The notes beneath the pieces are model-generated. The model was given only the letters and a program-made list of their open reading frames with translations, did not search any database and had not been told where the DNA came from. The position numbers and the translations under genes are program-made. From assembly GCA_029938465.1 (NCBI GenBank), contig JAOZUW010000011.1, forward strand, positions 1 to 36,803: 36,803 bases of DNA, written 5' to 3'. The DNA is from Bacteroidales bacterium (GTDB lineage Bacteria; Bacteroidota; Bacteroidia; Bacteroidales; UBA12170). Below, piece by piece: positions 13,478-34,135 of this stretch (position 1 is the stretch's first letter; every line of letters begins with the position of its first letter).

Positions 13478-13487
13478 TTTCTTCTTT

Positions 13488-14855: not shown

Positions 14856-14859
14856 AATT

Positions 14860-15474
14860 TTAGGTAATGATTTTTACAAAAGTAATGATTTCTCCTTCTT
14901 TTACTTTTTTAAATCCTAGTCTTTTCAAATATTTGTCATTGGAATTGCTGTAACTATCGCTAATAAATTTTTTATATCCTTGTGATTTTAGTTGCACTTG
15001 GTAATTATTATAAATATATGTTCCAAGTTTATAATCACGGTATTCTGGAGTAACATAATCAAGTTTAATAATTACTTTGTCGTTTTTGGCTTCAGCCAGA
15101 AATACACCTGCTACTTGCATATTTCTCATCACTAATAGAGAGACGTTATAGGGAGTTGCGCTATTAAAGCTTGGAAAGAACTTTTTGATATCTTGCTTAT
15201 GGAATTCCAAAAAATCTAATAGGTATTTATTATCGTGCTTAATTTCCAAGGTTCTAAAATCTTCTTTTTTAGTGTATATTTTAGCTAGATAAATAATATT
15301 TATTATCATAATAAATGCATTTACAGCGCCTACAGGATAAGCTCCAATTGTAAAGCCATAAATAGTAAATAGTGTGCTTCCTGTTAAACTCAGCCATCGT
15401 AATCGTATGATTGAATTAAAAAGCATGGCTGCAGCAACAAAAAAAGATCCTAGATATCCTATAATTTCTATCAT
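14860..15474 (-). CDS. YgjV-like membrane domain fused to a GNAT-like domain
   Basis: This 204-residue protein has two parts. Residues ~1-70 hold three membrane segments (IIGYLGSFFVAAAML, LTGSTLFTIYGF, GAVNAFIMIINIIYL) resembling the YgjV inner-membrane family. Residues ~90-204 look like an N-acetyltransferase: VLAEAK-type strands, YVTPEYRDYKLGTYIY at the acetyl-CoA loop position, and KYLKRLGFKKV near the end. The acetyl-CoA loop is degenerate: Lys replaces the first Gly of the R-x-x-G-x-G pattern. It may modify a small molecule or a peptide at the membrane; nothing more can be said from sequence. It starts 77 bases after the glycosyltransferase stop and ends 4 bases before the hydantoinase ATG. 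Confidence 0.65.
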   Translation of the reverse strand: MIEIIGYLGSFFVAAAMLFNSIIRLRWLSLTGSTLFTIYGFTIGAYPVGAVNAFIMIINIIYLAKIYTKKEDFRTLEIKHDNKYLLDFLEFHKQDIKKFFPSFNSATPYNVSLLVMRNMQVAGVFLAEAKNDKVIIKLDYVTPEYRDYKLGTYIYNNYQVQLKSQGYKKFISDSYSNSNDKYLKRLGFKKVKEGEIITFVKIIT

Positions 15475-15494
15475 AAACTATGTTTTAATAAATA

Positions 15495-15532
15495 GAATTT
15501 ATACAAAATAAAATGTAAATTTATATAAATTC
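15495..15532. repeat. Inverted repeat in the gap before the YgjV-GNAT gene
   Basis: GAATTTATA (15495-15503) and TATAAATTC (15524-15532) are perfect 9-base arms 20 bases apart, in the 77-base space between two leftward genes. AT-rich arms occur easily by chance, so the role is open; an operator or weak hairpin is possible. Confidence 0.3.
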
Positions 15533-15551
15533 ATAGTGTATTTTCTCTTCA

Positions 15552-17519: not shown

Positions 17520-17536
17520 TGGTTTTATTTAAACGT

Positions 17537-17544
17537 CAAAAATA
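17537..17544 (-). promoter_or_regulatory. Candidate -7 box for the GT2 fusion gene
   Basis: TATTTTTG on the minus strand, 17 bases before the ATG, fits TAnnTTTG; the upstream TTG is missing at 19 bases. Confidence 0.3.
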
Positions 17545-17609
17545 ATATTTTATTTGGTATGACTGAGTAAGCTATGGGATGTGGGATATCTTTAGTTCCA
17601 TTTTTATAT

Positions 17610-18470
17610 CTATCTGCCGGTATTGTTGAGTTCTTTATGGTAATTGGCTAATGCTTCAATGGGTCTTTTTATAAAATACCCACATTCCATTTGATGTTTT
17701 TTAAGGATTTCTTTTAGTATATCTTGGTAATTCCATGCAATAGAACCTTGAAAATGAATTTTTTCTTTATTAGTGTTCCATAAAGGAAGGATAAAATAGT
17801 CTAAAAATTCCTCAAAAGATTGTTTAATTACTGATTGAATAAAGCTATTGTCTTTGTGTTTTTTAATAAATGGCGAAAAACTTGCCAAAAATCTATTTGG
17901 GAATTCTTGATTATAGAGATGATTTAGCAATTGACTTAAATCTAGCTGAGGATAATCTTTTTTGAAAGCATCAATAATCTCTTTTGGAGCCTTTTGTGTA
18001 AAAATTGCTTTCAATAAAAGCCTCCCAAAATGATTTCCAGATCCTTCATCTCCTAACATAAATCCAAACGACACAGCTTCTTCTGTAATATTTTTTCCAT
18101 TATAAACGCAAGCATTAGATCCTGTTCCTAAAATACATGCAATGCCAGATTTATTTCCTATAAGTGCTCTTGCTGCAGCTAATAAATCATGTTGAATTTC
18201 AATTTCTGCATTTTTGCAGACTTGTTCTATTCCGGAATGGATAATTTTTTTAGAATCAAAAGTACTGCATCCGGCACCATAAAAATATACCTGTTTTATT
18301 TTTAACAGTTGTTCTTCACTAAAAGTATTTTCCAGAGCTTGTGTAACTTGTTCGCTATTTACAAAAAATGGATTTAAACCTTTACTCAGCGAAAAGAGTG
18401 GTTTTGGTGCTTTGGTATGAAGTAAAGCCCAATCTGTTTTTGTTGATCCGCTATCTGCAATTAGTATCAT
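17610..18470 (-). CDS. N-acetylglucosamine kinase-like ATPase (BadF/BadG/BcrA family)
   Basis: This 286-residue sugar-kinase/HSP70-fold protein has the first phosphate motif ILIADSGSTKTDWALL at the N-terminus. ACILGTGSNACVYNGK (~113-128) and GFMLGDEGSGNHFGRLLL (~136-153) follow, with an adenosine-side motif late in the chain (FQGSIAWNYQDIL). This is the layout of the Bacteroidota proteins called N-acetylglucosamine kinase. It would phosphorylate GlcNAc (or a related amino sugar) with ATP in the cytosol, feeding GlcNAc-6-P to catabolism or wall synthesis. It is divergent from the amidohydrolase gene, and a 21-bp palindrome lies directly before its ATG. Substrate by family only. Confidence 0.82.
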   Translation of the reverse strand: MILIADSGSTKTDWALLHTKAPKPLFSLSKGLNPFFVNSEQVTQALENTFSEEQLLKIKQVYFYGAGCSTFDSKKIIHSGIEQVCKNAEIEIQHDLLAAARALIGNKSGIACILGTGSNACVYNGKNITEEAVSFGFMLGDEGSGNHFGRLLLKAIFTQKAPKEIIDAFKKDYPQLDLSQLLNHLYNQEFPNRFLASFSPFIKKHKDNSFIQSVIKQSFEEFLDYFILPLWNTNKEKIHFQGSIAWNYQDILKEILKKHQMECGYFIKRPIEALANYHKELNNTGR

Positions 18471-18479
18471 ATTGAATAA

Positions 18480-18500
18480 TTTGCGCTAAATTAGCGCAAA
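18480..18500. promoter_or_regulatory. 21-bp perfect palindrome, putative operator
   Basis: TTTGCGCTAA and TTAGCGCAAA are perfect 10-base arms around one A, in the 56-base gap between the divergent kinase and amidohydrolase genes. The right arm overlaps a TATTTTTG -7 box on the minus strand (18497-18504), so a bound repressor would block the kinase promoter. The two GC-rich GCGC cores stand out in the AT-rich gap. Confidence 0.65.
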
Positions 18501-18526
18501 AATACAAAAATTGAAAACAAAATAAT

Positions 18527-20158
18527 ATGAAGTCGATATACATTATTATTATGATGATAGCTATTACCTCCTGTTCAGCGCCAAAACAAGTAGATTTTAT
18601 TGTTTATAATGCAAATATTTATGCAGTTGATGCTGATTTTTCACAATTTACGGCCATGGCTATTTTTGATGGAAAAATTATAGATACAGGAAGTGATCAG
18701 AAAATAAGAGGTTTATATCAGGCTGATTTGGAGGTGGATATGAATGCAGCTCCCATTTATCCAGGTTTTGTAGATGCGCATTCTCATTTTATTAGTTATG
18801 GTAAGAGTTTAGTTTCCAAAGCTGATTTAGTGGGTACCAAAAGTTTTGAAGAAGTTATAGAGCGATTAAAAATATTTGAAAAAGAGTTTGAAGCAGAATG
18901 GTTAATAGGAAGAGGCTGGGATCAGAACGATTGGGAGAATCAGTCATATCCTGAGAAAGAGGCATTAGATTTGATTTGGCCTGATAAAGCGGTGTATTTA
19001 ACCCGAATTGATGGTCATGCTGCTTTGTTAAATTCCAAAGCCATGGCATTAGCCGGAATAGATGCTTCAACACATATTGATGGAGGCGAAGTGCTTAAAA
19101 AAAATGGTAGACCTATTGGTGTGTTACTTGATAATGCTATGGAAATGGTATGGAAAATAATGCCTCAAATTAGCGATGATCTATTGAGACAAGCTATTCA
19201 CGAATCAGAAAGAAATTGTTTTTCTAAGGGATTAACAACAGTTTGCGACGCTGGATTGGAATATGATGAAGTGCAGCTATTGGATCAAATGCAAAAAGAG
19301 GGAAGCTTGAAAATGCGTATTTATGCTATGTTAACTCCTACTGATGAAAACATAGAGAAAATGTTGCCACAAGGCCCTTATAAAACGGATAGGCTGAATG
19401 TTCGTTCTATCAAGTTATATGCTGATGGAGCATTAGGTAGTCGTGGGGCCTGCTTAATTCATGATTATTCTGATCAACCCAAGTGGAAAGGTTTTATGTT
19501 GAGCCCTCAACAATATTACGATTCGCTATGCGCATTGGCTTACCGTAGGGGTTTTCAAGTGAACACTCATGCCATTGGAGATTCGGCAAATAGAATGATA
19601 CTGAGAACTTATGCCAGATATCTTGAAAAAGATAACGATAAACGATGGAGGATTGAACATGCTCAGGTGGTGCATCCTGATGATTTTGATTTATTTGCAA
19701 AATCGAATATTATTCCCTCAGTGCAGCCTACACATGCCACAAGTGATATGTATTGGGCTGATGAGCGCCTTGGCAAAGAAAGGATAAAATCAGCGTATGC
19801 CTACGAAAAACTACGCATTCAAAATGGATGGATTCCCTTAGGGACGGATTTCCCCATAGAAAAGATCGATCCGCTTTTAACATTTCATGCTGCTGTTGCT
19901 CGGAAAGATCTTAATAATTATCCTGCCGACGGATTTCAAATGGAAAACGCACTAAGTAGAGAGCATGCTTTAAGAGGAATAACTATTTGGGCTGCAAAAG
20001 CTGCATTTGAAGAAAATGAAAAAGGAAGCTTAGAGCCTGGGAAATTTGCTGATTTTGTGGTGCTAGATAAAGATATTATGGAAATAGATGATGCTGAAAT
20101 CCAAGTAGTTAAAATAAGGAAAACCTACATCAATGGAGAGTTGGTTTGGGAAAGATAA
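18527..20158 (+). CDS. YtcJ-like amidohydrolase, lipoprotein
   Basis: This 543-residue metal-dependent hydrolase of the amidohydrolase-3 group has a lipoprotein signal (IIIMMIAITSCSAPKQ, Cys at ~17), so it is exported and lipid-anchored. It shows GFVDAHSHFISYG (two metal His), RIDGHAALLNSKAMALAG, LYADGALGSRG, NTHAIGDSANR, RIEHAQVVHPDDF, and GTDFPIEKIDPLLTFHAA with the terminal metal Asp, in the usual YtcJ order. Family members hydrolyse N-acyl or amide bonds in varied compounds; the substrate here is not known. The length is typical. It follows the palindrome and is divergent from the kinase gene; it ends 216 bases before the LacI-type regulator. Confidence 0.85.
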   Translation: MKSIYIIIMMIAITSCSAPKQVDFIVYNANIYAVDADFSQFTAMAIFDGKIIDTGSDQKIRGLYQADLEVDMNAAPIYPGFVDAHSHFISYGKSLVSKADLVGTKSFEEVIERLKIFEKEFEAEWLIGRGWDQNDWENQSYPEKEALDLIWPDKAVYLTRIDGHAALLNSKAMALAGIDASTHIDGGEVLKKNGRPIGVLLDNAMEMVWKIMPQISDDLLRQAIHESERNCFSKGLTTVCDAGLEYDEVQLLDQMQKEGSLKMRIYAMLTPTDENIEKMLPQGPYKTDRLNVRSIKLYADGALGSRGACLIHDYSDQPKWKGFMLSPQQYYDSLCALAYRRGFQVNTHAIGDSANRMILRTYARYLEKDNDKRWRIEHAQVVHPDDFDLFAKSNIIPSVQPTHATSDMYWADERLGKERIKSAYAYEKLRIQNGWIPLGTDFPIEKIDPLLTFHAAVARKDLNNYPADGFQMENALSREHALRGITIWAAKAAFEENEKGSLEPGKFADFVVLDKDIMEIDDAEIQVVKIRKTYINGELVWER

Positions 20159-20374: not shown

Positions 20375-21430
20375 GTGAAAAAGAAATCTCTTAACGATAT
20401 TGCCACCGAACTTGGTGTTTCTAAAACACTAGTATCCTTTGTTTTAAATGGTAGGGGTGATGAAAAATCTATCAGTAAAAAGACCCAAGAGAGGGTATTG
20501 TTATTAGCAGAAAAGTACAATTTTAGTCCTAATTTTATGGCGCGGGGATTGCGTATGGGCAAAACCCATACTATTGGTTTGATTGTAGCTGATATTTCAA
20601 ATAAATTTTATGCAAAGATTGCTAAAGAAGTAGAAAAGGTGGCTGCTCAAAATAATTATAATGTTATTTTTTGTAGTTCTGATGAATGTGTGGATAAAGA
20701 AAAAGAATTGATTCAGATACTTCGAAATCGTCAAATAGATGGATTAATTATTTCTACCACTCAAAAAGATTCGAGCTTTTTTACACAAATGAAAAAAGAA
20801 AACTTTCCTTTTGTTTTAATCGATAGGAAATTGCCTAGAATAAAAGCAAATTATGTGGGTAGTGATAATTTTCAAGGAGCTTATGATGCAACATCTCATT
20901 TAATTACTAATGATTATGCCAACATTGGCTTACTTAAAATATCCCCCAATTATTTAAGCTCCATTAAAGAACGTGAACAAGGATATAGAGCGGCTTTAAA
21001 AGAAAATGGTATTAGATTGAATGCCAATTGGATATTTACTATTCCATTTGAGAAAATGCAGGAATCGGTTGATCAGTATTTCGATAGACTTCTTTCTCAA
21101 TCCAATTCTATTGATGCTGTTTTTACTATAAATAATAGTATCGCCATTGCCTGCTTAGATTATTTTAATAGGCATCATCATCATATACCAAATGATATGG
21201 CTATTCTAAGTTTTGACGACATAGAATTGTTTAAGTTTTCTTGTCCAAATATTACGGCTATTGCTCAGCCAGTGGAAGATATTGGTAGGCAGGCTGTACA
21301 ATTATTATTAAGTGACATGAATGGTGTAAGTCATACTAAACAAGAATATAAATTAGCTGTTTCGCTGATAGAGCGTAATTCAACAAGAAAAATCAATCAT
21401 TTATTTGAGAAAAATAATGACAAAAATTAA
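20375..21430 (+). CDS. LacI-family transcriptional regulator
   Basis: This 351-residue protein starts at GTG (no in-frame ATG nearby gives a proper N-terminus). Residues 1-~55 are the LacI helix-turn-helix and hinge: SLNDIATELGVSKTLVSFVL, NGRGDEKSISKKTQERV, ARGLRMGKTHTIGLIVADI. The rest is a periplasmic-binding-protein-like sensor domain (FYAKIAKEVEKVAAQNNYNV, DGLIISTTQ, VGSDNFQGAYDAT, ILSFDDIELFKFSCPNITAI). Such regulators bind a sugar or sugar phosphate. Here the gene is immediately followed by susC (the end overlaps or nearly touches it), so it probably controls this locus and itself. This differs from the hybrid two-component or ECF-sigma control common for Bacteroidota polysaccharide loci. 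Confidence 0.92.
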   Translation: MKKKSLNDIATELGVSKTLVSFVLNGRGDEKSISKKTQERVLLLAEKYNFSPNFMARGLRMGKTHTIGLIVADISNKFYAKIAKEVEKVAAQNNYNVIFCSSDECVDKEKELIQILRNRQIDGLIISTTQKDSSFFTQMKKENFPFVLIDRKLPRIKANYVGSDNFQGAYDATSHLITNDYANIGLLKISPNYLSSIKEREQGYRAALKENGIRLNANWIFTIPFEKMQESVDQYFDRLLSQSNSIDAVFTINNSIAIACLDYFNRHHHHIPNDMAILSFDDIELFKFSCPNITAIAQPVEDIGRQAVQLLLSDMNGVSHTKQEYKLAVSLIERNSTRKINHLFEKNNDKN

Positions 21431-21434
21431 AAAT

Positions 21435-24400
21435 ATGAAGAAACAATTACTGACTTCGATCATTTTACTCTTTCTGTCTACAGCAATTTTAGCTCAGATG
21501 AAAAGTGTAAATGGTACAGTTATTTCTGCAGAGGATGATTTGGGTCTTCCTGGTGTTTCGGTGAGTATTAAAGGAACTACACATGGGGCATCCACCAACC
21601 TAGATGGTCATTTTAATTTATCTGGAGTTGCGGATACTGATATTCTTTTATTTAGCTTTATTGGTTTTAAAGATCAAGAGATTCTTGTTGGAACAAAGAA
21701 GGAGTTTTTTGTAAAAATGGAAGTATCTGCTACTAATTTGGATGAAGTAGTAGTCACGGCTCTTGGAGTAAAACGTCAAAAGCGCGAAATAGGTTATTCT
21801 ACCGATAAAATTGAAACAGAAGACTTGGTTCGATCTAATGCTCCTGATGTAATAAATGCCATTGTTGGACGCTCCGCAGGAGTTCAAGTGGCGCAAGGGA
21901 ATGGTGTAGAAGGAGGCACAACTCGTATTACAATTAGGGGTAATAATAACTTGGATGGTAATAACCAACCCTTGATAGTGGTGGATAACGTACCTTTGGA
22001 TAATCCGGAAAGTAGCGTTGGCATAGGAAGAGGTGTTGATTGGGGAAACCCCATTGCCGATATTGATCCGCAAGATATTGAGACCTATAATATACTTAAA
22101 GGAGGAGCTGCCTCTGCTTTATATGGTTCGCGAGGTGCAAATGGCGTTATTTTAATAACCACGAAAAAAGGCAAGAAAAGAGAAGGAATAGGGGTTTCTT
22201 ATAACTTTACTCATAAAATTATACATCCTTATAAGTACCGAGATGTGCAAAATACATATGGTGCAGGAGGTCCTGTTTCCTTTACACCATCTTCTTTTCC
22301 TATGAATGGTGATACCCTATTATATCCTGGAACATATGGAACTGATAATTTGATTATTAATCAAGATGGAGATGTTTCGTCAAGTGCTGCTGAATTTGGT
22401 TATTATGGGTCATCTGTTTCATGGGGTCCTAAAATGGAAGGTCAAATGGTACAATGGTGGGATGGTGAGATGCGAGCCTACTCTCCTCAACCCGATAATT
22501 TAAAATCAGTTTATCAGGATGGTTCTACTCAAACGCATCATATTTCTGCTTCAGGTGGTAGTGAAAAAGGAACAATGAGAGTTTCCATTATGCGACAAGA
22601 TCATAAAGCAATGATTGAAAATAGTAATTTTGATAGAACTTCAATAAGTGTTGGAGCAAATATGAAAATCTCAAAAAAAATCAGAACTGATGCTTCATTG
22701 TCCTATGTTAAATATAATCGTTTAAATAGCCCAATACTAGGAGATGATCATAATTCTTTTAGTAAAGGTTTTTTGTATTCATGGCCTAGAAGTTACCAAG
22801 GTGTTGATAAGCAAAATTATATGAATTCTGATGGAACTAGAAATGAACAAGAAGGGTTTCCGTATATGTATGTAAGTCCATATTTATGGTGGAACTATTA
22901 TAAAAATAACACACAACTATCTCGAGATAGATATTTTGGATCTATTTCTTTAACTTACGATATTAATTCCTGGATAAGTATAATGGCACGTGCAGGAAGT
23001 GATTTTACTTTAGAACAATTTACAACTAAAAAATCTCCAACAGATTTTATTGGTTTAAAAGATGGGCACTATTCAAGTAGTTTAAAAAGAACTTATTCTA
23101 ATTCCTATGAAACTTTTTTAACTGCCGAAAGGAAAATTGGTGGAAAGTTTAAAGCTAAATTTACAGCAGGAATGAGTCGCTGGGACTATAATCTATATGG
23201 TATTGGTGGAAGATCAGGCACATGGTATTATCCAAATATGTATTACTTTAACAATTATACTGAAACTACTTATATAAAAGATGAAGGTGGTCATAATTAT
23301 GTAGAGCATATGGGAGATGGTTTGTCAAGGGTTGTTGCCAGTGAAGAGGTGAGCCAAGAAAGAAATAGCTCTGTATATTCGTTTTTAAACCTGTCATACG
23401 ATAATTATTTATTTTTGGAGTTGACAGGAAGAAATGACTGGTCTTCAACATTGCCAGAGGAAAACAACTCCTATTTTTATCCATCAGTATCGCTTAGCTT
23501 TATTCCTACCGATGCCTTTCATTTGGAAAGATATACTCCCTGGATGAACTTTATGAAAATACGGGGTGGTATTGCTCAAACGGCTACAGATGCTACTCCA
23601 TACAGAAGGCATTTCTATTATAGCCCTGGTGTATTTGGAGGTCAACAGACTTCTCAATTCCCCAATACTATTCCTCCTTTTAGTTTAAAACCACAAAGAG
23701 TAAATGCCTATGAAATAGGTTTAAACCTAAGTTTTTTACAAAATAGAATTACTTTTGATTTTACTTATTATTACTTATATTCCTTTGATCAATATATTCC
23801 TCAACTTCCTCTTCCTGTTTCATCAGGTGCAAATTTTATTACAACTAACGATGGTATTGTAACTAATAAAGGTATTGAGTTTACTATTGATGCCGTACCT
23901 ATTCAAACTAAAAATGTTTTATTTAAAACAGGCATCAATTTTAGTCGCAATAAAAATACCGTTGTTGATTTAGGAGGATATGCAGATGTGCTGGAATTGG
24001 CTAATATTTGGGGTCTTAATGGTCCATCTATGGTACTTCACGAAGGTGATGAATATGGTACTATTTACGGTTACGATCATTTATATGATGAAAATGGTCG
24101 GCCAATAGTAAACGATGAAGGAACTAAATATTTAATCACCGATAATAGAGTGCCTATTGGTAATGCTTCACCTGATTTTCTGGCAGGTTGGACAACAGAA
24201 CTGCACTATAAAGGCTTCACTCTATCAACACTTATTGATACTAAATGGGGTGGCGATATTTATTCCGGCTCCTATGTGATTAATCTTCAAACCGGACAAA
24301 GTCCCGAAACATTGATCGAGCGAGAGGGTGGAGGTTTACCTTATACCGATCCTGATGGCAATACAAGCAATATTGGAATTATTCTAGATGGAGTACATGA

Positions 24401-24749
24401 GGACGGTTCGGAAAATAATACCGTAGTACACTATTATTATAAATATTTACCCAATGCAGGTGGTTGGGGTAAGTTTATTTCTACTCCCGGAGTAGTGGAG
24501 AATACTTGGATAAAAATGCGTGAAATAGCTTTAGTTTATCAGTTGCCTCATAAAATTCTTAGAAAAACTAAAGTATTCCAAAAACTATCAATTTCTCTTG
24601 TAGGTAGAGACTTGTTTTATTTTTATACTACTTTACCTGACAATATTAATCCAGAGGGAATTATGGGCTCAGGAAATGCACAAGGATTTGAGTGGGCATC
24701 CATGCCAAGTTCTCAATCTTTCACAATAGGAATATCAGCTTCATTTTAA
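21435..24749 (+). CDS. SusC/RagA-type TonB-dependent outer-membrane transporter
   Basis: This is a 1104-residue protein with signal peptide MKKQLLTSIILLFLSTAILAQ. A CarboxypepD-reg-like domain follows at ~22-100 (VNGTVISAEDDLGLPGVSVS, TSTNLDGHFNLSG type). The TonB plug has LDEVVVTALGVKRQKREIGY, VNAIVGRSAG-type repeats and RGNNNLDGNNQPLIVVDNVPL. A long barrel ends in FTIGISASF, a C-terminal Phe. It should import a substrate across the outer membrane with energy from TonB, as a pair with the SusD-like lipoprotein 19 bases downstream. The open frame extends to ATG 21417 and TTG 21405, overlapping the regulator's end; the ATG at 21435 gives the clean signal peptide. No plug-specific clue fixes the substrate; the following PNGase-like genes suggest glycans or glycopeptides. 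Confidence 0.95.
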   Translation: MKKQLLTSIILLFLSTAILAQMKSVNGTVISAEDDLGLPGVSVSIKGTTHGASTNLDGHFNLSGVADTDILLFSFIGFKDQEILVGTKKEFFVKMEVSATNLDEVVVTALGVKRQKREIGYSTDKIETEDLVRSNAPDVINAIVGRSAGVQVAQGNGVEGGTTRITIRGNNNLDGNNQPLIVVDNVPLDNPESSVGIGRGVDWGNPIADIDPQDIETYNILKGGAASALYGSRGANGVILITTKKGKKREGIGVSYNFTHKIIHPYKYRDVQNTYGAGGPVSFTPSSFPMNGDTLLYPGTYGTDNLIINQDGDVSSSAAEFGYYGSSVSWGPKMEGQMVQWWDGEMRAYSPQPDNLKSVYQDGSTQTHHISASGGSEKGTMRVSIMRQDHKAMIENSNFDRTSISVGANMKISKKIRTDASLSYVKYNRLNSPILGDDHNSFSKGFLYSWPRSYQGVDKQNYMNSDGTRNEQEGFPYMYVSPYLWWNYYKNNTQLSRDRYFGSISLTYDINSWISIMARAGSDFTLEQFTTKKSPTDFIGLKDGHYSSSLKRTYSNSYETFLTAERKIGGKFKAKFTAGMSRWDYNLYGIGGRSGTWYYPNMYYFNNYTETTYIKDEGGHNYVEHMGDGLSRVVASEEVSQERNSSVYSFLNLSYDNYLFLELTGRNDWSSTLPEENNSYFYPSVSLSFIPTDAFHLERYTPWMNFMKIRGGIAQTATDATPYRRHFYYSPGVFGGQQTSQFPNTIPPFSLKPQRVNAYEIGLNLSFLQNRITFDFTYYYLYSFDQYIPQLPLPVSSGANFITTNDGIVTNKGIEFTIDAVPIQTKNVLFKTGINFSRNKNTVVDLGGYADVLELANIWGLNGPSMVLHEGDEYGTIYGYDHLYDENGRPIVNDEGTKYLITDNRVPIGNASPDFLAGWTTELHYKGFTLSTLIDTKWGGDIYSGSYVINLQTGQSPETLIEREGGGLPYTDPDGNTSNIGIILDGVHEDGSENNTVVHYYYKYLPNAGGWGKFISTPGVVENTWIKMREIALVYQLPHKILRKTKVFQKLSISLVGRDLFYFYTTLPDNINPEGIMGSGNAQGFEWASMPSSQSFTIGISASF

Positions 24750-24768: not shown

Positions 24769-26397
24769 ATGAGAATTTTAATAAAATATATAAGCATCTT
24801 AATCCTCACTCTGGGAATACTGGCTTCCTGTACCAAGGATTTTGAAGAGATAAATACCAATCCACATGGATTCACCAATGCTAGTGATGGATCTTTGTAT
24901 AATGGTGTAATACAAAGGCTTGCGCCTAAAGGCAATGAATTGTTTTATATTAATAGTGAAATATTGTATAAACAAACACAACTTCTTTCATTAACAAGAG
25001 CGGCTTGGGGTAATTTTACACTAGGTACCGAAGCATCTTGGGGTAATTATTATTTAAGCCTTCCAAATTTAAGAGAATTGGAGAAACGTTTCGAGACTAT
25101 GTCACCATCCGATGAGCTAAGCAATATGAAAGCTATGATTAAAATCATTTTGGCTTATGAAACTTTTAAAATTACCGATATGTTTGGTGATATTCCATTC
25201 TTTCATGCAGGTTATGGTTTCCACACTTTGGAATATTTGCATCCTGAATATGATTCTCAAAAAACTATTTATTTATATCTATTAGAAGAGCTAAAATGGT
25301 GTGATGAAAATATCAATACCGAAGCAGTAAATGATGAACCTTTTAAAACCTTTAGAGTTTTTGATGCTTTGTTTAATGGAGATATGTTGCAATATCAAAA
25401 ATTTGCCAACTCCTTGAGATTAAGATACGCTATGCGTATGAGTGATAAAGAACCAGAATTGGCAGGGCAAATAATACGAGATATAGTTGAAAATGAACGT
25501 CCTATATTTCTTGGCTATGATTTTCTTGATTATGTAGGTGAGAGTGCTTGTTTGTGGCCTGCCCAAATGGGTTTCACTAATGGAGCCATCGATTGGGCTT
25601 TTTATGAGCATAAAAACTTAAGAGTAGGTAGCAATGTATGGCATATGGTTTCGAGCAATGATAATATAAATGGTGATGGGATTTTCGATCCCAGAGCATA
25701 TATCTTCTTCGAACCCAATAATGCCAATGAATGGGTTGCCTATCCTCAAATACCAGATAATAACACCCCTGCTCCTGGCGGTATACCTTATGGTACGCAC
25801 CGTGATGGGTTGACTACCTTTACTGTAAAAGGCGAAACCAATAATTATTCTTTTGTAAACTATTTTATGCATAGAGATTATAATAATATACCTATCCTTA
25901 TGATAAGCGGTGCAGAAGTGCATTTTATTCTGGCAGAAGCTTATATGAAAGGTGTTGGAGTAGCACAAGATCCCGAAAAGGCAGATATTGAATATATGGA
26001 AGGCATTAACTCTTCGGTTGAATGGTGGGTAGATGTGTCCAATAACTCTGTATTACCTTTATCACAATTAAAATTTCCAGATATGATTAACATTCCTGAA
26101 GGAATAAATGCAGCAAGTGTTCTTTCAGTCTTTGGTTCTTGGAATGCACCTAGTGATGAGGATAAATTAAAATTTATTTATACGCAACGAATGCTTGATG
26201 CATTTTGGCAACCATGGGAAGCATATGCTTTGGCAAGAAGAACAAATATGACAGCTCGAGAAGGTGATCCAATCAATCATTTTAGACTTCCATACCCACC
26301 TTCAGAACAAGAGTTTAACATGGAAAATATGATGAAAGCCAAACAAAATCAGGGAGGCGATTCACCTGAAGATAAAATATGGTGGATTAATTATTAA
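24769..26397 (+). CDS. SusD/RagB-like surface lipoprotein
   Basis: This 542-residue protein has a lipoprotein signal (SILILTLGILASCTKDFEEI, Cys at ~21) followed by NTNPHGFTNAS, the usual start of the SusD-like 2 group. TPR-like helical segments, the FKITDMFGDIPFF block, and late motifs with AYALARRTNM follow, as in this family. SusD lids bind glycans or peptides and close the SusC barrel. It is 19 bases after susC and 38 before the first PNGase-like gene. No promoter or terminator is seen between them, so one transcript is likely. Confidence 0.92.
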   Translation: MRILIKYISILILTLGILASCTKDFEEINTNPHGFTNASDGSLYNGVIQRLAPKGNELFYINSEILYKQTQLLSLTRAAWGNFTLGTEASWGNYYLSLPNLRELEKRFETMSPSDELSNMKAMIKIILAYETFKITDMFGDIPFFHAGYGFHTLEYLHPEYDSQKTIYLYLLEELKWCDENINTEAVNDEPFKTFRVFDALFNGDMLQYQKFANSLRLRYAMRMSDKEPELAGQIIRDIVENERPIFLGYDFLDYVGESACLWPAQMGFTNGAIDWAFYEHKNLRVGSNVWHMVSSNDNINGDGIFDPRAYIFFEPNNANEWVAYPQIPDNNTPAPGGIPYGTHRDGLTTFTVKGETNNYSFVNYFMHRDYNNIPILMISGAEVHFILAEAYMKGVGVAQDPEKADIEYMEGINSSVEWWVDVSNNSVLPLSQLKFPDMINIPEGINAASVLSVFGSWNAPSDEDKLKFIYTQRMLDAFWQPWEAYALARRTNMTAREGDPINHFRLPYPPSEQEFNMENMMKAKQNQGGDSPEDKIWWINY

Positions 26398-26435: not shown

Positions 26436-28943
26436 ATGAAAAACTTATTAAATAATTTACGAATAGTCTGGTTATTTGCTATTATGCTGACGCCATTCTT
26501 ATTAACCGCACAATCAAACCAATACCTTCATTTCGATGGAGAAGATGACTATGTTATTCTTGAAGAAGCAGGTCAATATGTTGGGGGTGAAGCTCTGACT
26601 ATAACAGGTTGGTTTTATTTAGATCAATTAGGCTATGGTCAAGGTTATATGGGTTTTCGCTCAGGTTCTGGTGATGGCGAATTCTATCTCATTCAACTTA
26701 ACAATGGCGTAATGGAATGCCGTATAGTTACCACAACAGGTCTTCATCAATTTGTGGCTCCAGCCAATACGGTAGCTCCACAAGTTTGGCAGCATATTGC
26801 TTGGGTTTATGATGGAAGTAGTATTAAATTATATGTAGGTGGAATATTAATTGGTAGTTCCTCAGCCAATGGAACTTTTTCAAACCCCACTGTTCCTTTT
26901 GGAATAGGAAAAAGTCTTTTAGGTGGATTTAACTTTGTATATGGTGGTAAAATTGATGAAGTAAGTGTATGGAATAAAGCCCTATCACAAGAGGAGATTC
27001 AAGATATGATGGAGGATGAGTTAAGCGGCGATGAAGAAAACCTTCAGCTTTATTATAAATTTAACCAAGGTGATCCAGGTGGTGATAATACTAGCATCAC
27101 GCATCTAACATGTGATGTAGGTAATGGTGAAAGAGATGGTGAACTGATGAATTTTGCATTAACCGGTGAAACATCTAATTTCAATGGAGATCTTGATCCA
27201 GGTTATCAAGCTATTTCATTTCCACAGATACCAAATCATTTAACTACTGATGCGCCATTTGAACTACAAGCTACTACCACTTCGGGGCTTGAAGTTAGCT
27301 TTGAAGTGCTTTCAGGACCTGCCAGTGTAGAAGGAAATATTTTAACTTTGGATGGCGTTGCTGGTGAAGTTGTTGTGGAAGCTACTCAGGAGGGCGATAG
27401 TCAATATGATCCCGCCGATCCCATTCAAAATATCTTTTTAGTGTTAAATCCAGATACTTTTACTCCGGTAATAGATATTCGAAATCCATTAGCGGGTGAT
27501 GTTTATGTTCCCACTTTGGCACCTATTCAAATAGCTTCCATATGTAGCATAGAATATCCCGATCTTTTTCAAGTCACAAGCGTACAGTTTTCGGTTGATG
27601 GAGAGAGTGTTGATGTAATTAAGCATTATAATACACATTATACAGGATGGTGGACTCCACCATCATACGGCAGTTATAACCTAAGTGTTACTTCTACCAA
27701 TAACTATGGAGCATCAAATACCGAAAGTGTGGAAATAGTAATAGTTGAAACTGCTACAGATATGGATGTCTCAGCTTTTGAAGGTATTTGGCTTAACCCT
27801 AGTATCCCATCTATTGTTGTAGAGGCTGAATTACCTTCATTTTTAGGTGCTTTTGATCAGATTATAGGAAATCTTGAAGTGCAGTGCCCTGATGGTGGAT
27901 GTGGTGAATGGGATAGAGTAGCCAGTATCGATGCCAAAGGACATAATGGTGTGTGGTATGAGATTATCAGATATATTACGCCCTATGGTGTTCCTTGTTC
28001 TCATGAAATAGACTTAACAGATTATGCCAGTGCCCTACAAGGTAAAATTGATTTTAGAGTAAATTGTGGAACTCTGGATAATGGATTTGAGTATTTTTTG
28101 ACTCTTGATTATAAACAAGGTACTCCGGATCATTTGTATAGTAATATCAATAAAGTATGGAACGAAACCTATCCATTTGGCGATTATGCAATGATGCAAC
28201 CTGTGGATGGCTACAGTTTTTCATTTAGAGAAGAAGCCGTTGCAGCAAAACTCAAACTGCTATCAACAGGACATGGTTGGGGCGATCTTAATACTAGTAA
28301 TGCAGCAGAATTTTATGAAGCTACACACAATATCTGGATCAATGGTGAAGAAACCTATGAGCAACATAATTGGCTGGATTGTAATCCAAATCCAGATGCT
28401 TGTCAGCCTCAAAATGGAACTTGGTATTATGATCGTGCAGGCTGGTGCCCTGGTGCCATTGCGCCTTGGTTTGATTATGATCTTACTTCTTATATTTCTA
28501 ATGAAATTATAGAAATGGACTATGTCTTTTATGAAGATTATGTGGATTATTGTCATCCTAATCACCCTGATTGTGTTACTGGTGTAACTTGTGATGATTG
28601 TGAAAGTGGATTTAATCCTCATCTCATTGTTGCCAGTAATTTAATTGTTTTTTCCGATGAACCCATAGTGACAGGAATTACACCGGAAAAACTAAATACG
28701 AAACCTATGATTCATTTGGCTCCAAATCCTACAGATGGTAAATTTGATATTACTGTTATTACAAGAAATGAATCGGTGGATGGTATTATGCACTTATATA
28801 GTATGTCTGGAGAATTGCTTGAACAAATATATATGAGTAATATCACAACGCATTGCGATTTCTCTTCCTATGCTGCAGGAGCTTATATTGTAAAGGTAGA
28901 AGCAAATAATGAAATTAAACAGTTCAAATTGATTATTCAATAA
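26436..28943 (+). CDS. LamG - Ig-like - PNGase F-like amidase with T9SS sorting domain (copy 1)
   Basis: This 835-residue secreted protein has a signal peptide at ~1-26. A LamG/ConA-like jelly roll lies at ~27-205 (GEALTITGWFYLD, WQHIAWVYDGSSIKLYVGG). Two Ig-like modules lie at ~258-440 (NHLTTDAPFELQAT, WTPPSYGSYNLSV). A PNGase F-like region lies at ~445-755: EWDR at 491-494 (D493 aligns with catalytic D60), YEIIRYITPYG, GTPD-LYS, NAAEFYEATHN (E625 aligns with E206), PQNGTWYYDRAGWCPG. The C-terminal T9SS domain is ~768-835 (LAPNPTDGKFDI). PNGase F cleaves the amide between GlcNAc and Asn of N-glycoproteins. The third important acid (E118) is not conserved, so activity is likely but unproven. 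It contains the Cys/His loop C706-H-x2-H-x2-C713-x5-C719-x2-C722. Confidence 0.85.
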   Translation: MKNLLNNLRIVWLFAIMLTPFLLTAQSNQYLHFDGEDDYVILEEAGQYVGGEALTITGWFYLDQLGYGQGYMGFRSGSGDGEFYLIQLNNGVMECRIVTTTGLHQFVAPANTVAPQVWQHIAWVYDGSSIKLYVGGILIGSSSANGTFSNPTVPFGIGKSLLGGFNFVYGGKIDEVSVWNKALSQEEIQDMMEDELSGDEENLQLYYKFNQGDPGGDNTSITHLTCDVGNGERDGELMNFALTGETSNFNGDLDPGYQAISFPQIPNHLTTDAPFELQATTTSGLEVSFEVLSGPASVEGNILTLDGVAGEVVVEATQEGDSQYDPADPIQNIFLVLNPDTFTPVIDIRNPLAGDVYVPTLAPIQIASICSIEYPDLFQVTSVQFSVDGESVDVIKHYNTHYTGWWTPPSYGSYNLSVTSTNNYGASNTESVEIVIVETATDMDVSAFEGIWLNPSIPSIVVEAELPSFLGAFDQIIGNLEVQCPDGGCGEWDRVASIDAKGHNGVWYEIIRYITPYGVPCSHEIDLTDYASALQGKIDFRVNCGTLDNGFEYFLTLDYKQGTPDHLYSNINKVWNETYPFGDYAMMQPVDGYSFSFREEAVAAKLKLLSTGHGWGDLNTSNAAEFYEATHNIWINGEETYEQHNWLDCNPNPDACQPQNGTWYYDRAGWCPGAIAPWFDYDLTSYISNEIIEMDYVFYEDYVDYCHPNHPDCVTGVTCDDCESGFNPHLIVASNLIVFSDEPIVTGITPEKLNTKPMIHLAPNPTDGKFDITVITRNESVDGIMHLYSMSGELLEQIYMSNITTHCDFSSYAAGAYIVKVEANNEIKQFKLIIQ

Positions 28944-28953
28944 ATCTATCATC

Positions 28954-31467
28954 ATGAAAAAGTTTTACTTAATATTGAGCTTATTACTTCTTGGAATAGG
29001 ATTAAATGCTCAGGAGTTTACATATGATTTCAATGATTTAGAATTGGCCAATCTAAATGGACAGGATGGATGGACAATCGTTATAAATGCAGGAGGTTCT
29101 CCTAATGAAATGGAAGTTGCCTATGAATATATGGGTGTTGTTGCTTATGATGGCACAAAAGGTGTTTTTTATGGACAATCAGGTGGTAATTATGGACGCA
29201 CTGCTTCTAGAGAGTCTCTAGAGGATTTCCCCTTTGACTTTACTTTAGGTGGGCCGGTAGAAATTATTGTAGATATACACACTGGTTGGTGGGGAACCTT
29301 ATTTGGCTTTGGCTACGATGCCAACGAAAATGGCTATTTAATGCATGCTCAGGAAACTATTATCGAAATTGAAGATAACGAAGGTGGGTTTGGTTTTCAT
29401 TTGGGTAGTGCCAGTACAAGCTATCCTGTTATCAATAGTTTTTTTATGCCAGATGGAAGTACGATACCATATACTTTTCCCTTAGATGATATAGGCGGAT
29501 GGCATAGATATAAACTCTTTCTAGACTTAGATGCTAATGATGGTGCGGGAAGCATTACTATGTTTGTTTCTGAAATGGATGGTGATTTTGTTGCTGTTTC
29601 TGAGATTTCTGATCTTGACTTAGGTATGACATCCAGTAGTGGCGACAGTAATGACCCTGCTACTTGGACTAAAATATTTTTGCATGCCACAGGAGGCACT
29701 AGTGGTTTTGATAATTTAATTATTAATCAACCAAATACTGGTGGATTGCTTTATCAGTATATTACTTTTAATCCCCTTCCTAATCATCTTTCTACTGATG
29801 CTCCTTTTACAGTAAATGCTACATCAAACCAAGGTTTAGAAGTGGAGTTTTCAATAGAAAGTGGACCTGCAACCATATCTGGAAATATTATTACTTTGAC
29901 AGGAGAAGCAGGAGTTGTAGCGGTTACTGCAAGCCAACCAGGAAATGATGATGTAGCTCCGGCAGACGATGTTACTCAATCTTTTGATGTGATTGATCCT
30001 ATGTCAGTTTTTCCTGAATTGAAGATTAGAAATGCTGTAGATGGAGAAGATGTAAGGATGCCTGAATTGATGGCTATGGCATTTTCTATCTCCACTGAGA
30101 TAGAGCATCCTGATTTATTGCATATTGCTGATGTAAAATTTACAGTAGGAGAGACAGTGATACAAGGCTTTGAAACAAATAATGGCTTTTTTGTTGGAAA
30201 TTGGACTCCTCCATCCTATGGCAATTATAGCGTAAGTGTTAGTATCACAAGCTCGGGTGGAGTATCTGCTAGTGAATCGCTTAACTTTAATGTTGTTGCA
30301 GAAGCTCCTACAATGAATTTTGAGGTTATTAATGAATTTGCCTTTGATGGAGAGAATAAAATCGATACTTCATTCAATCTTCCGAGTTTTGCGGGTACCT
30401 ACACATCTATCATTGCTCACTTAGATTACGGTTGTCCTTGCGACCCATGGGATCGTGTTGCCAGAGTGAGTATCCGTGGTGCCAATGGAGAATGGATGGA
30501 ATTATTCAAATACATTACACCATATGGTGTTGCTTGTGAGGATCAAATTGATATTACTGATTTTGCTTCTCAATTACAAGGTAATATTGATTTTAAAATC
30601 ACTTTTCCTGAGTCAGTAATATCTCTTACTTTTGAATATACTGAAGGTACACCCGAGTATAAGTATTCTTGGATGGATAATCTTTGGCAAGGAACCTATC
30701 CTTTTGGCGACTATGCCAATATGCAACCTGTAGAGCCATACAGTCTCAATTTAAATGGTGGTATCGGAAAAGCATATTTGCGTTTGCTAAGCGGAGGATT
30801 TTCTTGGGGACCAACTAATACTGATAATGCAGCGGAATTTTATGAAGCTACTCATAATATCAAGCTTAACGGAGCAACAGAATTTCAGCAGCATTTATGG
30901 CAAGATTGTAATCCTAACCCAGCTAGCTGTCAACCACAAAACGGTACTTGGTATTACGACAGACATGGGTGGTGTCCTGGAAGTATTCCAATTCTATTTA
31001 GATACGACTTAAGCCCTTGGGTTGGTGTTTCTGGCGTCAACTTACAATATGAGTTTTACCCCGATTATATTGATTATTGCCACCCAAATCATCCTGATTG
31101 TGTAACAGGAGTTACTTGCGATGATTGTAATGCCACTTGGAATCCTGAAATCAATGTGTCAGGAGAGTTGGTTTCCTATAGCAATGAATTGATTATAACT
31201 GCTATAGATGCAAAGCCTATAGAAGATCATATCATTATTGAACCCAATCCTTCTACAGGTTTGTTTATTATTTCTGCTTCCAGTAAGGAACTGTCAAAAT
31301 ATTCTTTTATTGAGGTGTATAATACCGCCGGAGTACTAATGAATACTTTTAGCACTTCAGCGAATGAGAGAATAATTTTAGATTTAACATCCTATTCCAA
31401 AGGTATTTATCTAATGGTTCTTAAAGGTGGTAAAAGTAATATTACTAAGAAATTAATTATTCAATAA
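28954..31467 (+). CDS. ConA-like - Ig-like - PNGase F-like amidase with T9SS sorting domain (copy 2)
   Basis: This 837-residue paralogue starts 10 bases after copy 1. The signal peptide is MKKFYLILSLLLLGIGLNAQ. The N-terminal jelly roll at ~22-265 (NLNGQDGWTIVIN, GNYGRTASRES) is unlike the LamG of copy 1 but like copy 3. Ig-like modules lie at ~270-450 (NHLSTDAPFTVNAT, ESGPATISGN). The PNGase F-like region is ~455-750: CPCDPWDRV (D500), LFKYITPYG, TPEYKYSW, NAAEFYEATHNI (E628), DRHGWCPG. The T9SS domain is ~765-837 (IEPNPSTGLFII). The loop equivalent to PNGase F E118 is shorter and lacks a matching Glu. The Cys/His loop runs C709 to C725. It would act outside the cell or on the cell surface. 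Confidence 0.85.
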   Translation: MKKFYLILSLLLLGIGLNAQEFTYDFNDLELANLNGQDGWTIVINAGGSPNEMEVAYEYMGVVAYDGTKGVFYGQSGGNYGRTASRESLEDFPFDFTLGGPVEIIVDIHTGWWGTLFGFGYDANENGYLMHAQETIIEIEDNEGGFGFHLGSASTSYPVINSFFMPDGSTIPYTFPLDDIGGWHRYKLFLDLDANDGAGSITMFVSEMDGDFVAVSEISDLDLGMTSSSGDSNDPATWTKIFLHATGGTSGFDNLIINQPNTGGLLYQYITFNPLPNHLSTDAPFTVNATSNQGLEVEFSIESGPATISGNIITLTGEAGVVAVTASQPGNDDVAPADDVTQSFDVIDPMSVFPELKIRNAVDGEDVRMPELMAMAFSISTEIEHPDLLHIADVKFTVGETVIQGFETNNGFFVGNWTPPSYGNYSVSVSITSSGGVSASESLNFNVVAEAPTMNFEVINEFAFDGENKIDTSFNLPSFAGTYTSIIAHLDYGCPCDPWDRVARVSIRGANGEWMELFKYITPYGVACEDQIDITDFASQLQGNIDFKITFPESVISLTFEYTEGTPEYKYSWMDNLWQGTYPFGDYANMQPVEPYSLNLNGGIGKAYLRLLSGGFSWGPTNTDNAAEFYEATHNIKLNGATEFQQHLWQDCNPNPASCQPQNGTWYYDRHGWCPGSIPILFRYDLSPWVGVSGVNLQYEFYPDYIDYCHPNHPDCVTGVTCDDCNATWNPEINVSGELVSYSNELIITAIDAKPIEDHIIIEPNPSTGLFIISASSKELSKYSFIEVYNTAGVLMNTFSTSANERIILDLTSYSKGIYLMVLKGGKSNITKKLIIQ

Positions 31468-31546
31468 TCATGTGAATCATTCCACTGATATTTTGAGGTA
31501 AATCTCATTATTTCAGATGGAATGGTTTTTTAAGACCCCTAATATT

Positions 31547-34066
31547 ATGAAAAGTATATATTTAAGTGTAATCTTTCTCTTTTTAAGTATATTTATTCAA
31601 GCTCAAATAGTTAATGAGTATGATTTTAATAGCTTAAGTGAAGGAGATTTAAATGGTCAGGACAATTGGCAAACTATTTTACATACTTCTGGTCCTCATG
31701 ATTTTACTATCAGCTATTCTGTTGGAAGTGTAGCGTCACCCGATGGAACCCTAGCTATTTTTTATAATGGAAGTGGTGGTGGATATGGAAGAACAGCAAC
31801 TAGAAAAACGAGTTCTAATTTTGATTTCGACCTCACACAAGCCGATATTATAGAAGTAGAAATTGATATGCACCGAAATTGGTGGGGTATGTTCTTTGGC
31901 GTTGGATTCGATGCTGATGGTGATGGACATATTGCTCCCGGTTTAGCTTCTGAACCTGATGATGGGGGTATTTATTTCACTATTTCTTCATATGAACCCG
32001 AGACTCATAATAAAGTTGTTTTGCCAAGTGGCGAAGAAGTTATTTATAATGTGGATAACAGCGGTTGGTGTCGCTATAAACTAGTGATGGATTTCACAGC
32101 TAATGATGGAGAGGGAGCCGTTGCATTGATGTTCGATCCAGGGGTAACAGGTGAATGGGTAGCCATTCCTGAGATCCAAGGTGTAAATATGGGCTTAACT
32201 CCTGGTTCTGGCGACATGAAAGATAGATCCGTTTGGGATGGTGTGTTTTTTCATGCTCAAGGAGGTACAGCGGCATATGATAATATTAAAATCACTCAAT
32301 CTGCTAGTAATGGAGAGTCGCAATATATCGACTTTGCTACTATAGATAATATGTTGACAACTCACGAATCATTTGAATTAGAGGCAACAGCCACATCTAA
32401 CTTGCCTGTAGTTTTTGAGGTTACCGATGGTCCTGCAACTCTTGATGGCAATACATTAAGTCTCACTGGAGAAGCCGGTATGGTAACTATTACTGCCAAT
32501 CAAGCTGGTGATGATATATGGGCTCCTGCACAAGAGGTTACCCAAACATTTGAAGTAGTGGATGCAACAGCATATACGGCTGATCTCACTATCCGAAGAC
32601 CTGCTGATTACGATAACTCTAGAGTATACATGACAGAATTAAATGCAATTCTTATTGTTGCTTCGGCATATATAGAGCATCCTGAAGTATTACATATCGA
32701 TAAAGTGAGTTATACTATTGAGGGCGCAAATGAAGTGATGACGGAAAAAAGCTGGGGAACAGGATATTATTCATCAGAATGGACTCCTTCGGATTATGGA
32801 ACATACACCATGACGATTACAGCAGAAACCACAGGTGGAATGTCATCGGTTCAAACCGTAACTTTTGAAGTAACTGATGAGATTGCAGATGTCAATGTTC
32901 AAACTTTCGATCAGGTTCATATCTCTACTTCTACCCAAACAACAGTTATTGATAACTTCGCATTTCCTACATATGTGGGTTCTTTCGATCAGATTATAGC
33001 TTATCTTGATGTTACTTGCCCAAGCGGCGGTTGTGATGCCTGGGATAGAGTTGGGCATATGTATGCCAAAGCTCCAAATGGAGAATGGGTGGAAATTATC
33101 AGATATATAACTCCTTATGGTGTAGCTTGCGATCATAATATTGAAGTGACAGATTATAGCTCTATTTTTCAGGGGCTTGTAGAAATGCGTTTTAGCATTG
33201 GAACCGATTCGCATGGATTTGTTGTAGATGTGAATTTCGATTTCCAAGAAGGAACGCCTCCTTATAAATACAGTTGGGTAAAAACACTTTGGAATAAAAC
33301 CTATCCTTTTGGTGATTATGATAACTTGCAACCTGTAGAGCCACTTGTGTGGAATTTTGAATCCATTACAGAAGTTGCAAAACTAAAAATCTTTAATACC
33401 GGACACGGTTGGGGCCCTTCTAATTCGCAAAATGCAGCCGAGTTCTACGAAGCCACACATAAGATTAAAGTCAATGATACCGATTTCGATCAGCATCTGT
33501 GGGTAGACTGTAATCCCAATCCTGATGGTTGCCAACCACAAAATGGCACTTGGTATTATGATAGGGCAGGTTGGTGTCCAGGTTCTATTGGTGCTATGTA
33601 CGAATATAATCTTACACCTTTTATCAATGAGAGCAATGCGAATATCAGCTATGAGTTTTATCCCGGCTATGTGGACTATTGTCATCCCAACCACCCCGAA
33701 TGTGTTTCGGGAGTAACTTGCGACAACTGTAATGAAGGATTTAATCCACATTATATTGTTTCAGCCTATATGGTTTCTTTTGGCGATGACCTTTTTATAC
33801 CTACCGGTGAGATACAAGAAGATTATTTTGGTATGCAATTATTCCCCAATCCATCACGATATAGTGTTCAACTTACTTCAAATAAGCAAAATCATTATAT
33901 CGATGCTAATGTGGAGATATATACTATTGGTGGTCGTTTGGTGAATGTTTTTACCTGGGATGGAGAAGCAAAAAATATTGATATCTCACAATTTGCCGAA
34001 GGAGTGTATATAGTCTCTATTTCTTCAGAGAAATATAGAGAAGTAAAACGCTTGCTTGTGGAATAA
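31547..34066 (+). CDS. ConA-like - Ig-like - PNGase F-like amidase with T9SS sorting domain (copy 3)
   Basis: This 839-residue paralogue is read from the ATG at 31547, where the signal peptide MKSIYLSVIFLFLSIFIQAQ begins; an ATG at 31517 in frame gives ten extra residues and is less likely. The N-terminal jelly roll matches copy 2 (DLNGQDNWQTILH, GGYGRTATRKT). Ig-like modules include DGPATLDGNTLSLTGEAG. The PNGase F-like region has CDAWDRVG (D500; the Glu before Trp is Ala here), VEIIRYITPYG, GTPPYKYSW, NAAEFYEATHKI (E632), PQNGTWYYDRAGWCPG. The T9SS domain starts at LFPNPSRYS. The Cys/His loop runs C712 to C728. The gap from copy 2 is 79 bases; a strong hairpin follows the stop. Confidence 0.85.
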   Translation: MKSIYLSVIFLFLSIFIQAQIVNEYDFNSLSEGDLNGQDNWQTILHTSGPHDFTISYSVGSVASPDGTLAIFYNGSGGGYGRTATRKTSSNFDFDLTQADIIEVEIDMHRNWWGMFFGVGFDADGDGHIAPGLASEPDDGGIYFTISSYEPETHNKVVLPSGEEVIYNVDNSGWCRYKLVMDFTANDGEGAVALMFDPGVTGEWVAIPEIQGVNMGLTPGSGDMKDRSVWDGVFFHAQGGTAAYDNIKITQSASNGESQYIDFATIDNMLTTHESFELEATATSNLPVVFEVTDGPATLDGNTLSLTGEAGMVTITANQAGDDIWAPAQEVTQTFEVVDATAYTADLTIRRPADYDNSRVYMTELNAILIVASAYIEHPEVLHIDKVSYTIEGANEVMTEKSWGTGYYSSEWTPSDYGTYTMTITAETTGGMSSVQTVTFEVTDEIADVNVQTFDQVHISTSTQTTVIDNFAFPTYVGSFDQIIAYLDVTCPSGGCDAWDRVGHMYAKAPNGEWVEIIRYITPYGVACDHNIEVTDYSSIFQGLVEMRFSIGTDSHGFVVDVNFDFQEGTPPYKYSWVKTLWNKTYPFGDYDNLQPVEPLVWNFESITEVAKLKIFNTGHGWGPSNSQNAAEFYEATHKIKVNDTDFDQHLWVDCNPNPDGCQPQNGTWYYDRAGWCPGSIGAMYEYNLTPFINESNANISYEFYPGYVDYCHPNHPECVSGVTCDNCNEGFNPHYIVSAYMVSFGDDLFIPTGEIQEDYFGMQLFPNPSRYSVQLTSNKQNHYIDANVEIYTIGGRLVNVFTWDGEAKNIDISQFAEGVYIVSISSEKYREVKRLLVE

Positions 34067-34095
34067 AATAATTATCCTCCCCATAGAATAAAAAT

Positions 34096-34135
34096 CACTA
34101 AGTTCTTTATTTGAACTTAGTGGTTCTTTCGTTTA
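34096..34135 (+). terminator. Terminator of the susCD-PNGase run
   Basis: CACTAAGTTC (34096-34105) and GAACTTAGTG (34113-34122) form a perfect 10-bp stem with a 7-base loop, followed by a T-rich stretch (TTCTTTCGTTT). It lies 30 bases past the stop of copy 3 and isolates the locus from rpsA. Confidence 0.8.

What the first reader, a model, noticed from the sequence alone, without database searches (positions are those of the whole stretch)
27880..33760. PNGase F-like modules keep two catalytic acids but lose the Cys pair beside one and the third acid
Seen: in all three copies the EWDR/PWDR/AWDR Asp (D493, D500, D500) and the Glu of NAAEFYEATH (E625, E628, E632) are present. As I recall Elizabethkingia PNGase F, these align with D60 and E206. 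There E206 sits in CAEWC, a disulfide; here the same place reads AAEFY without Cys. The loop that carries E118 is shorter or has no Glu in any copy. The other two disulfide pairs seem kept. This points to a distinct subfamily, possibly with a wider active site or different core-fucose tolerance.
Basis: partly seen in the sequence, partly recalled or inferred. Interest (0 to 1): 0.75.

Follow-up and report, generated by a model that had tools for sequence, protein, structure and literature searches.

The report
Three surface PNGases beside a SusCD importer
A Bacteroidales bacterium carries three side-by-side secreted enzymes of a separate branch of the PNGase F family, next to a sugar importer; they keep the two catalytic acids, and the two 'missing' features that drew attention are also missing in several proven PNGases, so they probably strip N-glycans from proteins in the ordinary way, perhaps including plant or invertebrate glycans that PNGase F cannot cut.

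Summary
All three proteins (26436-34066) keep the D60 and E206 equivalents, lack the C204-C208 pair, and have Gly (P1, P3) or a shortened loop (P2) where PNGase F has E118. They form a separate subfamily: one side of a branch supported 100/99 and found in 200/200 bootstrap trees, apart from PNGase F, PNGase F-II, Bacteroides PNGases and Ngly2. The two features used as evidence are not special. Among 82 aligned homologues the Asp and Glu are invariant, but only 20 have the Cys pair and the E118 column varies. Characterised PNGF-II and 7ZGN have Gly there and GDEF without Cys; Ngly2 works with Ala there. Better marks are a Cys-rich C-terminal insert, new invariant Cys, N-terminal beta modules and a T9SS tail. 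In 22 of 26 genomes a member sits beside SusC-SusD; in the window the order is LacI-SusC-SusD-P1-P2-P3. Most likely these are exported PNGases that free N-glycans for SusCD uptake. Tolerance of core alpha-1,3-fucose is plausible for P1 and P3 but untested. AlphaFold models were too poor to use. PNGaseDo (Draconibacterium, 2025) may already be a characterised member.

The parts
20375..21430 (+). LacI-family regulator, first gene of the likely operon
   Evidence: NCBIfam LacI-type models E 3e-69 (below equivalog cut-offs); ends about 5 bp before the SusC start
21435..24749 (+). SusC/RagA TonB-dependent outer-membrane transporter (ATG at 21435)
   Evidence: TIGR04056 572 bits, above cut-off; start read
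24769..26397 (+). SusD-like surface binding lipoprotein
   Evidence: PF12771/PF12741 above cut-off
26436..28943 (+). P1: signal peptide, Laminin_G_3, Ig-like modules, PNGase F-like domain, T9SS tail
28954..31467 (+). P2: same layout, different N-terminal module; truncated E118 loop, CPC, Phe instead of His in TGHG
31517..34066 (+). P3: same layout as P2; probable start M11
27753..28685 (+). P1 PNGase F-like catalytic domain
30298..31203 (+). P2 PNGase F-like catalytic domain
32885..33811 (+). P3 PNGase F-like catalytic domain
27906..27917 (+). P1 EWDR, catalytic D493 (= D60)
28062..28085 (+). P1 NCGTLDNG, G545 at the E118 position
28299..28328 (+). P1 NAAEFYEATH, E625 (= E206), no Cys pair
28551..28601 (+). 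P1 Cys-rich C-terminal insert CHPNHPDCVTGVTCDDC; the invariant Asp D704 lies two residues before it
30445..30456 (+). P2 PWDR, D500
30601..30618 (+). P2 TFPESV, shortened E118 loop
30826..30855 (+). P2 NAAEFYEATH, E628
33038..33049 (+). P3 AWDR, D510
33194..33217 (+). P3 SIGTDSHG, G562 at the E118 position
33431..33460 (+). P3 NAAEFYEATH, E642
34093..34125 (.). terminator-like 13-pair hairpin after P3, found on both strands
   Evidence: consensus match only

Best explanation
P1, P2 and P3 are T9SS-exported peptide:N-glycosidases of a distinct Bacteroidales subfamily of the PNGase F superfamily. The conserved Asp (D60) and Glu (E206) cleave the GlcNAc-Asn amide bond outside the cell. The freed N-glycans are then bound by the neighbouring SusD and imported by SusC, with a LacI-type regulator in the same gene cluster, and finished by GH29, GH92 and GH20 enzymes coded elsewhere in the genome. 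P1 and P3, with Gly where PNGase F has E118, probably accept core alpha-1,3-fucose as PNGase F-II does. P2, with a truncated loop and no TGHG His, is a diverged paralogue of altered specificity. Shown: homology, residue identities, monophyly, gene neighbourhood, sorting tails and the presence of the T9SS SprA gene. Inferred: activity, surface location, import of the product, fucose tolerance.
For: Matches to solved PNGase F. D60 and E206 are 46/46 in the subfamily and 82/82 across the superfamily set; R248 and C231/C252 are 45/45. Mutating either of these two acids abolishes zebrafish Ngly2, which has Ala at the E118 column (PMC12753239). E118 to Gly is the published mark of alpha-1,3-fucose-tolerant PNGase F-II and the B. 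massiliensis enzyme (PMC9522356), and the P1 Gly aligns with the PNGF-II Gly by profile alignment. SusC-SusD next to a subfamily member in 22 of 26 genomes; of the other four, three have short or edge-cut contigs. GH29 fucosidases beside members in G277, G167 and G228. The own genome has GH29 x4, GH92 x2, GH20 x2 and T9SS SprA.
Against: No activity data. PNGF-II keeps a compensating Glu (E419) that is not conserved here, so neither known third acid is present in P1 or P3. The window locus itself holds no glycoside hydrolase beside the PNGases. P2 has lost several otherwise conserved features. AlphaFold models were not confident (mean pLDDT 45 and 42), so active-site geometry is untested.
Confidence: 0.75

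Rival explanations
1. [quoted passage not shown]
For: The E118 column varies freely within the subfamily (G9 E8 P7 A5 V4 T3 and others) although the proteins are otherwise close, so it may not set specificity alone.
Against: Gly at this column is the published mark of fucose-tolerant enzymes (PMC9522356); six recently tested diverse PNGases were described as more open here, in line with activity on alpha-1,3-fucosylated substrates (PMC12381499).
Confidence: 0.25
2. One or more copies, P2 above all, are no longer enzymes but glycan- or glycoprotein-binding surface proteins that hand substrate to the others or to SusD.
For: P2 lost the TGHG His, shortened the E118 loop and collapsed CxxxxC to CPC; its relative L027 shows the same changes. 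N-terminal lectin-like modules. Catalytically dead-looking N-glycanase_C proteins exist in this genus.
Against: The Asp and Glu are invariant in P2 and all P2-type relatives, and the fold-wide conserved residues are kept.
Confidence: 0.12
3. They cleave the same kind of bond in a different substrate, for example N-linked glycans of bacterial, archaeal or algal proteins, or glycopeptides left after proteolysis, rather than typical eukaryotic N-glycans.
For: Three divergent paralogue types are kept side by side, and no glycoside hydrolase lies beside them; the same genome also has a true type II PNGase in a GH29 locus, suggesting division of labour.
Against: GH29 fucosidases and a NagB-like gene sit beside relatives, as expected for fucosylated GlcNAc-containing glycans.
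Confidence: 0.15

Closest known systems
PNGase F, Elizabethkingia meningoseptica (1PGS/1PNF)
   Same: Homologous domain by sequence; D60, E206, R248, W59, R61, C51/C56 (P1, P3) and C231/C252 kept
   Different: No C204-C208 pair, no E118, no W86, loop with S155 missing; extra Cys-rich C-terminal insert, N-terminal modules and T9SS tail; separate branch of the tree
PNGase F-II (4R4X) and B. massiliensis PNGase (7ZGN), type II
   Same: Gly at the E118 position (P1, P3); no Cys pair around the catalytic Glu
   Different: No conserved counterpart of E419; no PNGase_F-II_N domain; distant in the tree. The same genome has a true type II enzyme elsewhere (C227)
PNGaseDo from Draconibacterium orientale (PMC12381499)
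   Same: As described: three N-terminal beta modules, PNGase domain, T9SS tail, from a Bacteroidota; one of six PNGases characterised in 2025
   Different: Its sequence could not be obtained here, so membership in this subfamily is a guess from the described architecture
Zebrafish Ngly2 acid PNGase (9LWG)
   Same: Asp and Glu both essential; TGHG His; no Glu at the E118 column
   Different: Keeps the Cys pair (NCGEFC); very distant; acid enzyme believed lysosomal

Membership tests
PNGase F superfamily (PF09112/PF09113) | Match to N-glycanase_C above the curated cut-off | tested here: met
   50.3, 31.5 and 40.2 bits against 25
PNGase F superfamily (PF09112/PF09113) | Recognisable N-terminal jelly-roll half (N-glycanase_N) | tested here: inconclusive
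   Pfam N-glycanase_N is below its cut-off (12.8 of 22.4 bits in P3, none in P1 and P2), but phmmer and profile alignment to 1PGS cover the N-terminal half including D60
PNGase F superfamily (PF09112/PF09113) | Catalytic Asp and Glu (D60, E206) | tested here: met
   Present in all three copies, 82/82 in the set
PNGase F superfamily (PF09112/PF09113) | Double eight-stranded jelly-roll fold | tested here: inconclusive
   AlphaFold2 with five sequences gave mean pLDDT 45 and 42
PNGase F superfamily (PF09112/PF09113) | Release of N-glycans by GlcNAc-Asn amide cleavage | not testable with these tools
   Needs an enzyme assay
Type I (classical PNGase F) | Glu118 (or Asp) blocking core alpha-1,3-fucose | tested here: not met
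   Gly, shortened loop, Gly in P1, P2, P3
Type I (classical PNGase F) | Grouping inside one clade with PNGase F | tested here: not met
   Subfamily split off with 100/99, PNGase F outside; PNGase F is a long branch, but outside in 200/200 bootstrap trees
Type II (PNGase F-II) | Gly at the E118 position | tested here: met
   P1 and P3 yes, P2 no
Type II (PNGase F-II) | Compensating Glu (E419 of PNGF-II) | tested here: not met
   Aligned region holds no conserved acid
Type II (PNGase F-II) | PNGase_F-II_N bowl-like domain | tested here: not met
   PF22252 not found in P1-P3, found in the C227 enzyme
T9SS cargo | C-terminal Por_Secre_tail and T9SS in the genome | tested here: met
   PF18962/TIGR04183 in all three; SprA in the genome

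The most novel reading that the evidence does not exclude
The subfamily uses a rebuilt active site: the missing third acid is replaced by an Asp (P1 D704, invariant in 45 of 45) carried next to a Cys-clamped C-terminal insert that closes over the glycan core. Three tandem paralogue types with different E118 loops divide N-glycans by core decoration, so that one SusCD operon harvests plant, invertebrate and mammalian-type N-glycans outside the cell.
Probability: 0.13. Interest if true: 0.65.

Novelty: new member of a known kind. Interest (0 to 1): 0.42.

Why it matters
PNGases that accept core alpha-1,3-fucose are wanted tools for plant and invertebrate glycoproteins. This is a defined Bacteroidales subfamily (about 70 domains found here) with a conserved SusC-SusD neighbour, which makes a clear case for extracellular N-glycan harvesting by amidases. 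It also shows that the disulfide around E206 and E118 itself are not family-defining, which corrects a natural misreading when annotation is based on PNGase F alone.

Tried and rejected
Genome-contig search with full-length P3 gave one relative because the patterns mostly fell outside the catalytic core. A first tree was distorted by two wrongly cut rows (L074, L076) and was rebuilt without them. The 2015 PNGF-II paper is not held. No paper on a PNGase 'type III' was found under that name. Rejected: chance match (E-values), pseudogenes (open frames, conserved acids), and membership in the type I or type II group as tested.

Full report
What is there. The window is contig C63 of a 3.07 Mb genome in 260 contigs. 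The order is Bacteroidales: G277, listed as same order, has a contig of the same length as a record titled Bacteroidales bacterium GMC4_bin_2 and the same match. It carries three tandem genes, P1 26436-28943, P2 28954-31467 and P3 31517-34066. Each has a signal peptide by eye, N-terminal beta modules (Laminin_G_3 in P1), a PNGase F-like domain and a T9SS sorting tail. The PNGase domain is certain by sequence: phmmer to PNGase F structures E 4e-26, 5e-25 and 5e-29, profile E 7e-38, Pfam N-glycanase_C above cut-off.

Check of the observation. All three have the D60 and E206 equivalents, AAEFY instead of CAEWC, and no Glu at the E118 column: G545 in P1, a shortened loop in P2, G562 in P3. C231/C252 are kept. 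C51/C56 are kept in P1 and P3; in P2 they are reduced to CPC, so that disulfide is doubtful there.

Relatives. A profile of the three domains found strong relatives in about a tenth of the 295 Bacteroidales genomes sampled, often in two or more copies, and in one genome outside the order among 395 of the phylum. A further sample of highly complete genomes added more, many from one family. In 46 subfamily domains, D60 and E206 are 46/46; C204 is Ala in 44; C208 is Tyr in 41; the E118 column reads G9 E8 P7 A5 V4 T3 and others. New invariant Cys stand at the T89 position (GVxC), at the N238 position and in a C-terminal insert of the form YxDxCHPNHPDCVTGVTCDDC, whose Asp is 45/45.

Is it a distinct subfamily? 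Yes. A tree of 82 rows with PNGase F, PNGF-II, 7ZGN, 3KS7 and Ngly2 splits the 45 subfamily rows from all others with 100/99 support and in 200 of 200 bootstrap trees. PNGase F and Ngly2 are long branches, so their exact places are unsure. Within the subfamily, P1, P2 and P3 fall in different groups with relatives in other genomes, so the three types are older than this genome.

Are the two noted losses the reason? No. Across the 82 rows the Asp and the Glu are invariant, but the Cys pair is found in only 20, with at least three changes on the tree, and the E118 column varies. Proven enzymes share the same states: PNGF-II and 7ZGN have Gly at E118 and GDEF without Cys, 3KS7 has Asp and GDEF, Ngly2 has Ala. 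The literature already explains E118 to Gly as opening a pocket for core alpha-1,3-fucose (PMC9522356), and Ngly2 lost all activity when either of its two acids was mutated (PMC12753239). So the losses do not argue against activity, and they suggest fucose tolerance for P1 and P3. One difference from type II remains: the Glu that replaces E118 in PNGF-II (E419) has no conserved counterpart here.

Neighbourhood. LacI (20375), SusC (ATG at 21435, about 5 bp after the LacI stop), SusD, P1, P2 and P3 follow each other closely, and a terminator-like hairpin lies at 34093-34125. SusC-SusD lies beside a subfamily gene in 22 of 26 genomes examined; three of the other four have short or edge-cut contigs. 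A LacI homologue is near a subfamily gene in five. GH29 fucosidases lie beside members in three genomes. The own genome has four GH29, two GH92, two GH20 and SprA of the T9SS. The working picture is release of N-glycans outside the cell followed by SusCD import; import and order of events are inferred.

Known versus new. This is a member of the PNGase F superfamily, neither type I nor type II by the features tested. I therefore file this as a new member of a known kind.

Limits. No usable structure model, no activity data, and counts of relatives depend on the genomes sampled.

Noticed in passing
L116:8042-15076 (own genome, contig C227 about 13042-20076): A true type II PNGase (PNGase_F-II_N + N-glycanase_N + N-glycanase_C, with the IGNYDNGG Gly and SMEMLGQ Glu) with two GH29 fucosidases and a DUF4838 protein around it: a second, separate N-glycan locus in the same genome.
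   Followed up: partly
L117:1-1551 (own genome, contig C135) and L009, L011, L014, L015, L016 in relatives: A 520-590 aa N-glycanase_C protein found across this genus has, in the copies read, no WDR Asp motif and Lys, Arg or His in place of E206: a conserved, probably catalytically dead PNGase relative.
   Followed up: partly
window 28065-28067 (P1 C544) and alignment columns 127 and 345: Cys in the E118 loop and Cys in a C-terminal strand occur together in 18 of 46 subfamily domains, neither in 20, only one in 8: a possible disulfide tying the E118 loop. P1 has only the first.
   Followed up: partly
window 587-1741 (-): NamZ exo-beta-N-acetylmuramidase gene, unrelated to the finding.
   Followed up: no
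window 18527-20158 (+): Amidohydrolase_3 family protein (543 aa) just upstream of the LacI gene; possible link to the operon not tested.
   Followed up: no
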